Source of the DNA: Flavobacterium frigidarium DSM 17623
GTDB lineage: Bacteria > Bacteroidota > Bacteroidia > Flavobacteriales > Flavobacteriaceae
Assembly: GCF_000425505.1 (NCBI RefSeq)
Contig: NZ_AUDO01000009.1
Span: forward strand, 186,001-250,000
Reading direction: 5' to 3'
Length of the DNA stretch: 64,000 bases
The position numbers and the translations under genes were made by a program. Under the pieces are notes generated by a model. The model saw only the letters and a program-made list of their open reading frames with translations, had not been told where the DNA came from and did no database searches. Below, one piece after another: positions 31,924 through 64,000 of this stretch (position 1 is its first letter; each line of letters starts with the position of its first letter).

Positions 31924-33373
31924 ATGAACCAAACGCAAGCTAGTCAAGGTTAAGCCATTTGGCAACTTCTTGCTCGCATTAATCATGTCACTTACATTCA
32001 CTAACTGTCAAGTAGAAGAAGAGACTATTAAAAACCAAGCTAGCATTGAAACTGTAAGCGTGTTAGAAGCGATTTCATTTCTACGAGAAAACAATGTAAC
32101 TACTTCGTCGCAAACAGGAAAATAAATAACACTACAACCTCATTTCGATCAGATTTCGCAAGAAAAAATCACCTATACTAATCAGTTGTTAACGGTAATT
32201 CCAATTATAAATAAACAGGAAAAAGCAAGCAGTAGAATTCTATTATTAAAGATAGAAAAAGAACTAAAATCAGTAGCTTTTACGATGTACCCAGACGACA
32301 ACACTACTACTGCATCATTTATTGGAAAAATACTAATGCAAAACTTAAATGGTTCATTCATCAATGGATATAAAGTAAAAGAGGGCATTATTATTGCCCA
32401 ATATATCAAGAAAAATCAAAACACTGCCATCACAAGTAAAGATATAATTATTGATGGTGTTACTTTTACTGATTATGACGTTGTGATTGTCACAAACTAT
32501 TACCACAATCCTAGAAATTCCATAAACTTTATGTCATTGTATACTGGTTTTGCTGACACCGGATCTGAGAGTGATGGCTCCAGTATGAATTGGGACTATG
32601 GAAATGGTGGCGGTGGAGGTGGTCCAGTAACACCAACAGATGAAGATGAAGATGAAGATGAAGATGAAGATGAAGATGAAGGTGTAGCAAACTATATAGA
32701 AGACAATATTGATGACTCTGAACTAGATGAATGTACTAAAGCTATTCTTGAAAAACTTAAAAAATTAACTCATAGTGATATTGCCTGTATATTTGAGAAA
32801 TTTGGAACCCCAACTGACGGAACTTATAATATAAAAATAGTCTTAGGAAATCCTAATGACATGAGTTCTCTTGCACAAACTGAAACAATTAGTAAAAATA
32901 ATTATCTAATAACAATAAGTGAAGCATATATAAAAGGCACACCCAATAATCCTATTCGACCTACCGATTTATCGATAGCAGCAGTGCTAATTCATGAATT
33001 AATACATGCACATTTCAAAGCTCTATTTGACGATTTTCATAACAATGGAGATACATGCGCTTACGATAATTATGACTGTTTGTATGCAAAATATGCAACA
33101 AAAAATTATGTTGGAAAAATTGATGCACAACATGCACAAATGTTTGAAAACTATGTTCCTATAATAGCGGCAATTTTGCAGGAATTTAAACCTGGTTCAT
33201 CATCACAATTTTACGATGATATTGCAATGTCAACTTTGTTTGGTTTACAATACTTTGACGACAAGTACCCAAAAGGAGGTATAAAAAGAACTAGAATAGA
33301 AAATAATCGAATTTCTGAAGATAGTAATACTCCTAGAGGAGAAGCAACTCCTAAAGGAACTGCGTGTAAGTAA
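31924..33373 (+). pseudogene. Broken lipoprotein gene with HExxH metallopeptidase-like domain
   Basis: Reading frame 31946-33373 encodes a hydrophobic lipoprotein leader (LLALIMSLTFTNC), but two lesions interrupt it. The ATG at 31924 is out of frame; one extra base after ATGAA would restore Met-Lys-Thr-Lys-Arg-Lys-Leu-Val in frame. An in-frame TAA lies at 32123-32125. The open part from 32186 (396 codons, TTG first) has an N-terminal domain of about 140 residues, a Gly6 run, a (Asp-Glu)7 run, and a C-terminal domain with the zinc motif HELIH (codons 32993-33007) plus a later QHAQMFENY that may supply another ligand. It resembles multi-copy flavobacterial lipoproteins with variable C-terminal domains, from memory. 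Confidence 0.75.
32639..32680 (+). repeat. Hexanucleotide tandem repeat (GATGAA)7
   Basis: Seven perfect copies of GATGAA encode an Asp-Glu run just after a Gly-rich linker. The unit is a multiple of three, so length changes would alter the linker but not the frame. Confidence 0.95.
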
Positions 33374-45634: not shown

Positions 45635-45757
45635 CCTGCAAAAATACAGTATTTTCTTGGGGTTCAGGCTTTGAAACTTTTATTCCCTCATTTATGATAG
45701 CTGTGCTAATGCCTATTAAAATGGCAAATTTACATAAATAACTTGTCGTCATAAATA

Positions 45758-45828
45758 AGCCCGATAGCATTGTAAATCCTTGCGGGGCTGGCGTTATGCC
45801 CCGCAAGATTGAAGTGTATAGCGGGAAC
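45758..45828. repeat. GC-rich intergenic repeat, long hairpin (second copy type)
   Basis: Between the helicase stop and the transporter start, a GC-rich 71-base element forms a long imperfect hairpin. The inner stem CTTGCGGGGC (45779-45788) pairs perfectly with GCCCCGCAAG (45798-45807), and the flanks AAATC/GATT and CCCGATA/TAGCGGG extend the pairing. It starts with AGCCCGA and ends with GCGGGAAC, as in the element at 41980-42127. Confidence 0.8.
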
Positions 45829-45866
45829 ATTTATTATTGAGAATTGGGACGTCATCTTCCTGAAAA

Positions 45867-63052: not shown

Positions 63053-63412
63053 ATGGGAACAATAAAATTAAAGAACATTCGCACCTACTCTTACCACGGT
63101 TGTTTGATCGAAGAGGGAAAAATAGGATCGGATTATGTAGTGGATTTAGAGATAAAAACCGACTTAAGAAAATCATGTTTATCTGATGAATTAAGCGATA
63201 CTGTTGATTATGTGCAATTAAACAAAATTGTTGAAGAGGAAATGGCTATTCGCTCTAAGTTATTAGAACATGTAGGACACAGAATCATCATGAGGATATT
63301 CAATGACATCCCTGAAATCTCTAGGATTTTATTATCAGTTTCTAAATTAAATCCACCTATTGGAGGTGATGTTGAGGCTGTAACAATAGAATTAGAAGAA
63401 TATAGGAGCTAA
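63053..63412 (+). CDS. folB: Dihydroneopterin aldolase
   Basis: 119 residues, standard for FolB, which splits dihydroneopterin into hydroxymethyl-dihydropterin and glycolaldehyde in folate synthesis. The start IKLKNIRTYSYHGCLIEEGKIGSDY (in two parts) with its Tyr-Xaa-His-Gly pattern and the later LLEHVGHRIIMRIF and SKLNPPIGG with the lysine that takes part in catalysis are present. It forms oligomers in the cytoplasm. The gene is divergent from glnS (99-base gap) and precedes the tRNA-Cys gene. Confidence 0.92.
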   Translation: MGTIKLKNIRTYSYHGCLIEEGKIGSDYVVDLEIKTDLRKSCLSDELSDTVDYVQLNKIVEEEMAIRSKLLEHVGHRIIMRIFNDIPEISRILLSVSKLNPPIGGDVEAVTIELEEYRS

Positions 63413-63513
63413 AATTAAGAAGGGATAGCAAAATTAAAGCATTCATAATGTGTTAGATACTATATTTTTTCAAAAAAACTATTGAAAACCTTTTATGTAC
63501 TATAGATTTTAAG

Positions 63514-63521
63514 TACTTTTG
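63514..63521 (+). promoter_or_regulatory. -7 box of the tRNA-Cys gene
   Basis: TACTTTTG fits TAnnTTTG, 16 bases before the first base of the tRNA; no clear -33 element at the usual spacing. Confidence 0.55.
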
Positions 63522-63537
63522 CCATCCATTCAATTAT

Positions 63538-63608
63538 GGCGTCGTGGCCGAGTGGCTAGGCTGGGCTCTGCAAAAGCTCCTACTGCGGTTCGAATCCGCA
63601 CGATGCCT
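63538..63608 (+). tRNA. tRNA-Cys (anticodon GCA)
   Basis: A 71-base cloverleaf. The acceptor stem GGCGTCG pairs with CGATGCC (one G-T pair), the anticodon arm has the loop CTGCAAA with anticodon GCA, and the T arm TGCGG-TTCGAAT-CCGCA is perfect. The discriminator base is T, as normal for tRNA-Cys; the CCA end is not encoded. It has its own -7 box and terminator. Its 3' part is repeated downstream in a tandem array. Confidence 0.95.
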
Positions 63609-64000
63609 CAAAAACCTTCAAGGAAACTTGAAGGTTTTTTTTATGTCTAAATTTTTGTAAAATAGTAGATGAAATTATTGTTGGAATTCTCATGAGAGCT
63701 CAAGCACTTTCAAAGAAACTTGAAGTCTTTTTTATGTTTAATTTTTATCAAAAATTAGATAAAGATGTTGTTCGAATCCGCACGATGCCTCAAAAACCAT
63801 TTCGAAAACTTAGAGGTTTTTTTTATGTCTAAATTTTTGTAAAATAGTAGATGAAGCTGTTGTTGAAATATTCATAATAACTCAAGTAATTTCACATACA
63901 TTTAAGGTCTCTTTTATGTTTAATTTTTATAAAAAATTAGATAAAGATGTTATTCGAATCCGCACAGTACCTCATAAACCTACTAGGAAACTTGAAGGTT
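63588..64000 (+). repeat. Degenerating tandem array of tRNA-Cys 3' end plus terminator (runs off the window)
   Basis: Units start at 63588, 63680, 63770, 63862 and 63952, so they alternate 92 and 90 bases (period 182 for like units). Type A units (63588, 63770, 63952) begin with the T arm and acceptor end of the tRNA; the second A copy repeats 29 bases of it (63770-63798) without change. Type B units (63680, 63862) are diverged relatives. All have a T-rich hairpin-like middle and similar AT-rich tails. The last copy is cut by the window end. No gene is seen in this stretch. Confidence 0.9.
63610..63642 (+). terminator. Terminator of tRNA-Cys
   Basis: A perfect 13-base stem (63610-63622 with 63627-63639), a GAAA loop and a run of eight T directly after the tRNA. 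Decayed versions of the same hairpin occur in the later array units. Confidence 0.9.

What the first reader, a model, noticed from the sequence alone, without database searches (positions are those of the whole stretch)
63538..64000. Tandem decay array of the tRNA-Cys tail and terminator
Five units of 92/90 bases start from the T arm of tRNA-Cys; every second unit keeps the tRNA 3' end (29 bases without change in the unit at 63770), and the intermediate ones have lost it. The pattern A-B-A-B-A means a 182-base dimer was amplified. It may be the trace of repeated site-specific insertions at a tRNA 3' end (each leaving an attachment copy), or unequal crossing-over. It might also be transcribed as a series of tRNA-like tails if the first terminator is read through. 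The array goes on beyond the window.
Basis: partly seen in the sequence, partly recalled or inferred. Interest (0 to 1): 0.65.

Follow-up and report, generated by a model that had tools for sequence, protein, structure and literature searches.

The report
Tandem tRNA-end repeats in Flavobacterium
Behind the cysteine tRNA gene of this Flavobacterium lies a row of repeats, each a short AT-rich palindrome joined to a copy of the tRNA's end; relatives carry the same palindrome and layout at two other tRNA genes, which suggests a tiny sequence unit that settles at tRNA gene ends and multiplies there.

Summary
The array is real and runs past the window: 6 units on this contig, 2 at the start of another, then lysE; no second tRNA, no integrase seen. 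It is not a local decay series. Of 130 same-genus tRNA-Cys loci examined, 73 have two or more units. Each unit joins a conserved core of about 36 bp (AATTTTT-nnn-AAAAATT...TAAA) at nearly fixed spacing to a copy of the tRNA end that starts at the T loop. Between neighbouring units the palindrome arms, TAAA and T loop differ at 2-4% of sites; acceptor end, terminator and spacers at 13-18%. The same core, in the same outward order, occurs at tRNA-Ser(GGA) in two genomes and, antisense, at the 5' end of tRNA-Leu(UAA) in at least 22 of 150, where relatives show empty sites. The layout is that of the E. coli 'tRNA-linked repeats'; the core is unrelated. Most likely a minute non-coding unit inserts at tRNA ends, rebuilds them and accretes in tandem, by an unknown enzyme; an array useful to the host as RNA or protein-binding DNA is the main rival. 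Function is not shown. The survey for further sites was insensitive.

The parts
63538..63609 (+). tRNA-Cys(GCA), the host gene; copies start at its T loop (G53 = 63588)
   Evidence: ARAGORN, Rfam RF00005 51.4 bits
63610..63642 (+). terminator hairpin and T-run of the tRNA gene
   Evidence: sequence, fold
63643..63679 (+). decayed core in front of unit B1 (arms reduced to 5 pairs)
63680..63733 (+). unit B1: decayed tail copy (7 of 22 positions changed) and terminator-like stretch
63734..63769 (+). intact core ATGTTTAATTTTT-ATC-AAAAATTAGATAAAG plus five free bases
   Evidence: (R1, E 3.5e-18)
63770..63824 (+). unit A2: 22-nt tRNA tail without change, then terminator-like stretch and T-run
63825..63861 (+). 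decayed core in front of unit B2
63862..63915 (+). unit B2: decayed tail copy (9 of 22 positions changed) and terminator-like stretch
63916..63951 (+). intact core in front of unit A3
63952..64000 (+). unit A3 (tail with 4 changes), continues on C7 to 250098 with unit B3; the far end of the array opens contig C18 (L009 1-131)
63053..63412 (+). folB-like gene in front of tRNA-Cys; neighbour used to find the same locus in named relatives
   Evidence: the name folB is recalled

Best explanation
The array is a pile of copies of a very small non-coding unit that settles at tRNA gene ends. Shown: a unit is a core of about 36 bp (AT palindrome plus TAAA) followed, at nearly fixed spacing, by a copy of the end of the local tRNA gene, which at tRNA-Cys and tRNA-Ser of Flavobacterium starts sharply at the T loop; reading outward from the gene the order is gene end, core, gene-end copy, core, gene-end copy; the same core is found at three tRNA genes in the genus; empty and filled sites exist at tRNA-Leu. 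Inferred: a new unit enters at the gene end, rebuilds the end so that the tRNA stays intact, and pushes the old end outward; repeated entry, or unequal exchange between units, gives the tandem array. The parts that hardly vary (palindrome arms, TAAA, T loop) would be recognition sites of a recombinase or other protein encoded elsewhere, not identified. In this genome a pair of units, one intact in core and T loop and one decayed in both, was amplified as a dimer.
For: Array in 73 of 130 genus loci, facing lysE wherever lysE was found (241 of 296 loci, the genus and named sets overlapping). Core nearly invariant in 247 internal linkers and gap TAAA to TCGAATC 7-9 in 135 of 141 intact units at Cys, 7-8 in 8 of 8 at Ser. 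Homology to the tRNA ends one base before TTCGAAT: identity 0.94 at -1, 0.42 at -2, 0.08 at -3. Core and following copy go together: right arm in 239 of 247 internal but 81 of 192 last or single units; arms and T loop decay together, Fisher p 0.0008. Same core at tRNA-Leu(UAA) (found first by a model trained on Cys arrays only, E 2.5e-7 and 4e-7) and at tRNA-Ser(GGA); genome G068 has all three. Tandem arrays at each site. Empty spacers of 11-14 nt in 10 and filled ones of 74-279 nt in 19 of 29 typed Gly-Leu loci. Constraint within arrays on arms, TAAA and T loop.
Against: The copy at tRNA-Leu is of the 5' end, antisense, without a T loop; only ATCCG is shared with the Cys tail (by eye), so one T-loop-specific enzyme does not explain all sites. 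In other genera copies start at the anticodon loop or have the T loop replaced by a hairpin, and one array (L245) has no such core at all. No recombinase, circle or movement was seen; exact-pattern scans of viral contigs and similarity searches of phages and plasmids found nothing. At -5 and -7 before TTCGAAT identity to the tRNA is 0.61 and 0.54, which I take for shared A/T bases. Within-array constraint fits a host function equally well.
Confidence: 0.45

Rival explanations
1. Host-useful array at RNA level, of the kind proposed for E. coli TLRs: read-through of the tRNA-Cys terminator makes short RNAs of T-loop segment plus terminator that act as decoys or regulators, and selection keeps the working parts of each unit.
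For: Same orientation as the tRNA; T loop kept while the acceptor end drifts; 175 of 245 distal units still fold to -6 kcal/mol or lower in the terminator region; E. coli rrA/B/F RNAs arise by such read-through (PMC8144298, introduction).
Against: Distal terminator stems are only slightly better than mutated controls (-8.8 against -7.3 kcal/mol, 53 units); no consensus fold of core plus tail; the core has no exact TAnnTTTG box in 55 of 55 cores, against 30 of 30 tRNA-Cys upstream regions; at tRNA-Leu the unit lies antisense at the 5' end; no transcript data.
Confidence: 0.22
2. Host-useful array at DNA level: palindrome and T-loop sequence bind a protein and make a roadblock or insulator between the facing genes tRNA-Cys and lysE.
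For: The constrained pieces include two DNA palindromes, AATTTTT-nnn-AAAAATT and TTCGAA; lysE faces the array wherever it was found.
Against: At tRNA-Leu the unit lies inside a tRNA cluster, not between facing genes; TTCGAA is lost in other genera; many species do without an array (57 of 130 with one unit); no protein known.
Confidence: 0.15
3. Nothing but tandem duplication: one ancient duplication of tRNA end, terminator and spacer, spread and homogenised by slippage, unequal crossing-over and template switching at short homologies.
For: Unit number varies from 1 to 17 or more; copies follow the host tRNA variant in several species, by eye; arrays with another linker exist (L245).
Against: Does not explain why arms, TAAA and T loop vary several-fold less than acceptor end, loop and spacers of the same units, for A/T and for G/C positions apart, nor the near-invariant core across species, nor the same core at two other tRNA genes.
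Confidence: 0.13

Closest known systems
E. coli tRNA-linked repeats (TLRs), e.g. behind tyrV
   Same: Copies of the end of the gene lie outward of it, each behind a unit sequence; several stable-RNA genes carry them (22 TLRs at ten loci, PMC8144298 introduction); tandem at tyrV: three exact 19-nt tail copies at period 178.
   Different: Core unrelated (local score 15 against a shuffled mean of 13.6, 45 of 200 shuffles as high; no RtT hit); copies 22 nt from the T loop instead of 18-19 nt; a core of about 36 bp; different phylum; one site at a 5' end, antisense.
Attachment-site copies left by tRNA-targeting integrative elements (T-loop sub-site; recalled)
   Same: Junction at the T loop, gene end rebuilt, old end displaced outward; empty and filled sites.
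   Different: No element body, no integrase seen, unit only 66-120 bases, very regular tandem array.
E. coli rrA/rrB/rrF RNAs and the 3'ETS-leuZ RNA (PMC8144298, introduction)
   Same: Sequences behind stable-RNA genes that become RNAs by read-through or processing.
   Different: Those are shown to be transcribed; here no transcript is known.

Membership tests
tRNA-linked repeats (TLR) | Unit ends in a copy of the end of the stable-RNA gene directly upstream | tested here: met
   Cys and Ser arrays; at Leu the copied end is the 5' end, antisense
tRNA-linked repeats (TLR) | Copy of 18-19 bp identical to the gene end | tested here: not met
   Copies run from the T loop (22 nt), and many have diverged in the acceptor part; in E. 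coli tyrV 19 nt are exact
tRNA-linked repeats (TLR) | Present at several stable-RNA loci of a genome | tested here: met
   Three tRNA genes in G068; in the window's genome only tRNA-Cys was found
Rfam RtT (RF00391, number recalled) | Match to the covariance model | tested here: not met
   No RtT among matches up to E = 10 for 63500-64000
Site-specific integrative element at a tRNA | Recombinase gene in or beside the element | tested here: not met
   Six reading frames of 80 aa or more in 8 kb of C18: none looks like one, two tested by Pfam; other loci only by eye
Site-specific integrative element at a tRNA | Empty and filled sites with direct repeats | tested here: met
   tRNA-Gly-Leu spacer: 10 empty, 19 filled of 29 typed; 15 of 19 with a recognisable copy
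Site-specific integrative element at a tRNA | One crossover sequence common to all sites | tested here: inconclusive
   T loop at Cys and Ser; at Leu only ATCCG is shared, by eye
Site-specific integrative element at a tRNA | Excised circle or observed movement | not testable with these tools
   needs reads or cultures

The most novel reading that the evidence does not exclude
A new class of minimal mobile DNA: a non-coding unit with a core of about 36 bp that moves between tRNA genes by a dedicated recombination reaction, typically at the T loop, rebuilds the gene end and accretes in tandem in Flavobacteriaceae; the unexplained E. coli TLRs would be an independent or very distant case of the same process.
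Probability: 0.27. Interest if true: 0.8.

Novelty: new variant of a known kind. Interest (0 to 1): 0.62.

Why it matters
Repeats that end in a copy of a tRNA end have been known in E. coli since 1978; according to PMC8144298 the TLRs had no known function before that study. Here is a natural series: empty sites, single insertions, arrays of 2 to 17 or more units, three host tRNA genes and a site-by-site map of what is constrained. That makes origin and role directly testable in a cultured genus with harmless laboratory strains. It also warns that tRNA tail fragments behind a tRNA gene need not be relics of large islands.

Tried and rejected
Relic of integrated islands: no integrase seen at the own locus, constant unit length, lysE facing the array in all 241 of 296 loci where it was found. 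Promoter in the core: no exact TAnnTTTG in 55 of 55 cores on either strand; one-mismatch boxes are common on both strands in such AT-rich DNA. Conserved RNA fold of core plus tail: RNAalifold gives none; in single units the fold is mainly the terminator hairpin. Palindrome as covarying hairpin: 95.2% of 462 cells paired, but only one pair with changes on both sides (3 sequences), reached by 196 of 500 shuffles, so RNA hairpin and DNA palindrome are not told apart; counts of wobble-type changes were too few (2, 5, 1, 3). Conserved small reading frame: the own A2 unit reads open for about 25 codons, but many relatives lack the start codon (both by eye). Known RNA family: only sub-threshold Rfam hits beside the tRNA. 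Phages, plasmids, viral contigs: no match. The first, gapless variation test was disturbed by T-run length changes; there T loop and T-run were low (0.035, 0.013 against about 0.15 rotated) but palindrome arms were not (0.118, 0.128) and TAAA was high (0.215). The aligned test replaced it.

Limits. The core model R2 is insensitive to diverged cores: at its thresholds it recovered the Leu core in only 6 of the 22 genomes that have it by DNA match, so further sites may have been missed. Rows dropped before counts: 20 of the 150 genus genomes were not examined in detail (2 without a match, 18 not fetched); 2 of 80 named loci without an ARAGORN tRNA-Cys; segment pairs over 35% different; 3 of 32 Leu loci without the tRNA pair; 3 of 8 family loci flagged proved by eye to be whole second tRNA-Cys genes. 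Of the 55 loci without lysE, 16 end within 700 bases; 13 of all 55 were inspected for reading frames.

Full report
What is there. The window ends inside a tandem array that starts in the T arm of the tRNA-Cys gene. The window is G000:C7:186001-250000; C7 stops 98 bases later within a third B unit, and C18 opens with another B unit and a last A unit, after which come other sequence, probably a decayed gene remnant, and lysE on the other strand. So the assembly breaks in the repeat, the array has at least 8 units, and no second tRNA or recognisable integrase follows in 8 kb. In 30 other tRNA loci of this genome (of 46 other matches) tail hits coincide with whole second tRNA genes; none is tail-only.

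It is not local. In 150 genomes of the genus, 148 match the query that includes the tRNA and 113 match the 183 bases behind it. I took 130 loci (own plus 129 others) and searched them with a unit profile made from 105 seed units of the same loci: 73 of 130 have two or more units, 41 three or more, the largest 10 (E <= 0.01, so weak second hits are included). Of 80 named relatives 78 have an ARAGORN tRNA-Cys in the stretch; F. fryxellicola has 17 units in the 1,600 bases searched, F. dankookense and F. xanthum 7. lysE lies behind the array, facing it, in 108 of 130, 68 of 78 and 65 of 88 loci of the genus, named and family sets, never on the plus strand (the first two sets overlap). In genome G036 a putative insertion sequence (by eye) interrupts the array, which resumes about 3 kb on.

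Anatomy. A unit at tRNA-Cys is: tail copy from the T loop, a terminator whose stem differs between species, and a linker or core, ATGTYTAATTTTT-nnn-AAAAATTAnnTAAAG plus about five free bases. The last unit of arrays and single units often lack an intact core: right arm present in 239 of 247 internal but 81 of 192 last or single units, TAAA in 228 and 37. So core and following copy go together. In 141 units with intact core and T loop the gap from TAAA to TCGAATC is 7-9 in 135; homology to the tRNA falls from 0.94 to 0.42 to 0.08 over the three bases before TTCGAAT, n = 72 (further out, 0.61 and 0.54 at -5 and -7, which I take for shared A/T). In other genera of the family copies often start at the anticodon loop, and sometimes the T loop is replaced by a GC-rich hairpin. 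Outside the genus such arrays are sporadic: 5 of 88 tRNA-Cys loci taken without regard to the core; of 21 loci behind core-model hits, 14 sit at tRNA-Cys, and none of the 7 others shows flanking repeats of 10 bases or more. The 17 hits outside the family were weak and were not inspected.

Constraint. I compared neighbouring segments within arrays, cut in the terminator so that neither core nor T loop lies at an edge (130 pairs, 59 arrays, from 186 loci). Palindrome arms, TAAA, T-run and T loop differ at 1.6-4.3% of sites; acceptor end, terminator, spacer, palindrome loop and free bases at 13-18%; rotating the difference profile gives about 10.6%. A/T positions of the T loop differ at 2.7% against 13-18% in acceptor end, spacer and free bases (lower in 43 arrays, higher in 3), G/C positions at 7.0% against 16-20% (38 against 5), arms against variable A/T sites 47 against 2. 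Core and T loop decay together: of 225 units with a palindrome of 6 pairs or more 201 keep the following T loop (one mismatch allowed), of 11 without it 5 do (Fisher p = 0.0008); the two B units measured in this genome belong to the doubly decayed group. Terminator stems in distal units, by contrast, are only slightly better than mutated controls. An earlier gapless version gave low values for T loop and T-run but not for the core; it was disturbed by length changes in the T-run.

Other sites. The core model R1, trained on Cys arrays only, hit the core beside tRNA-Leu(UAA) in two genomes. A DNA search then found a match across it in at least 22 of 150 genomes (counted by eye from a capped list). 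It lies between tRNA-Gly and tRNA-Leu, antisense, followed by a copy of about the first 12 bases of tRNA-Leu; some sites are tandem (4, 3 and 2 cores in L418, L426, L420). Of 29 typed spacers 10 are empty (11-14 nt) and 19 filled (74-279 nt; 17 by the core pattern, two more, L422 and L428, with a degenerate core seen by eye); 15 of 19 have a recognisable copy. The own genome is empty there (14 nt, from the coordinates). A third site is tRNA-Ser(GGA) in G068 and G708: five units each, core plus copy from the T loop, without a terminator hairpin (counted by eye). G068 has all three sites. In 40 genomes chosen mostly for lack of a Cys array, the core model R2 hits only near tRNA-Cys and at two weak other places; but R2 misses most Leu cores (6 of 22 recovered), so this does not prove that the core is confined to these sites.

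Interpretation. Outward order, sharp T-loop junction, fixed spacing, empty sites and three host genes fit a minute unit that enters at the gene end and rebuilds it. The constrained pieces would then be its recognition sites. The Leu site without T loop, arrays with another linker (L245) and the lack of any known enzyme are the main weaknesses. That the units serve the host, as RNA or as protein-binding DNA, is not excluded. Sequence alone cannot decide.

Known relatives. The E. coli tRNA-linked repeats have the same layout (PMC8144298: introduction and search passages seen; tyrV of MG1655 measured), with no sequence relation. Searches of the open-access library for such repeats in Flavobacterium or Bacteroidetes brought no description in the titles and abstract starts listed (the term 'tRNA-linked repeats' is in two papers); subscription papers are not held. 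The TAnnTTTG promoter box comes from passages of PMC9723704; PMC9897764 was seen only as passages. The T-loop attachment sub-site of integrases is recalled.

Noticed in passing
window 45753-45832 (+): Flavo-1 RNA (RF01705, 57.6 bits, gathering 42), a known small RNA family.
   Followed up: no
window 32638-32681: Perfect 6-base tandem repeat AGATGA, 7.3 copies, possibly length-variable.
   Followed up: no
L247, L254, L263 (other genera of the family): Two different tRNA-Cys genes in tandem, the second with an unusual anticodon arm (CGCAAGG or CGCAAAGG).
   Followed up: no
L031, L035, L081, L124, L206, L211, L245, L301: Short palindromes of the type TCCCGAAGCTTCGGGA replace or follow the T loop of the tail copies, never that of the tRNA itself in the loci shown.
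   Followed up: partly
L009 (C18) 131-330: Behind the last unit, two overlapping open stretches that look like the end of a broken gene; no Pfam match.
   Followed up: partly
L026 and L505 (G036); L319 (Flavobacterium sp. 14A): Putative insertion sequences inside or at the end of the array (identified by eye).
   Followed up: no
L409 (G657) and L413 (G063): Weak core-model hits in one shared context in two species, no tRNA nearby, GTCATTTTTTGAAAAAATTAATTAAATATTTGTTCG; a further site or chance.
   Followed up: no
L428 (tRNA-Leu site): Core with TAACTTT...AAAGTTA, a paired change at a second palindrome position, by eye.
   Followed up: no
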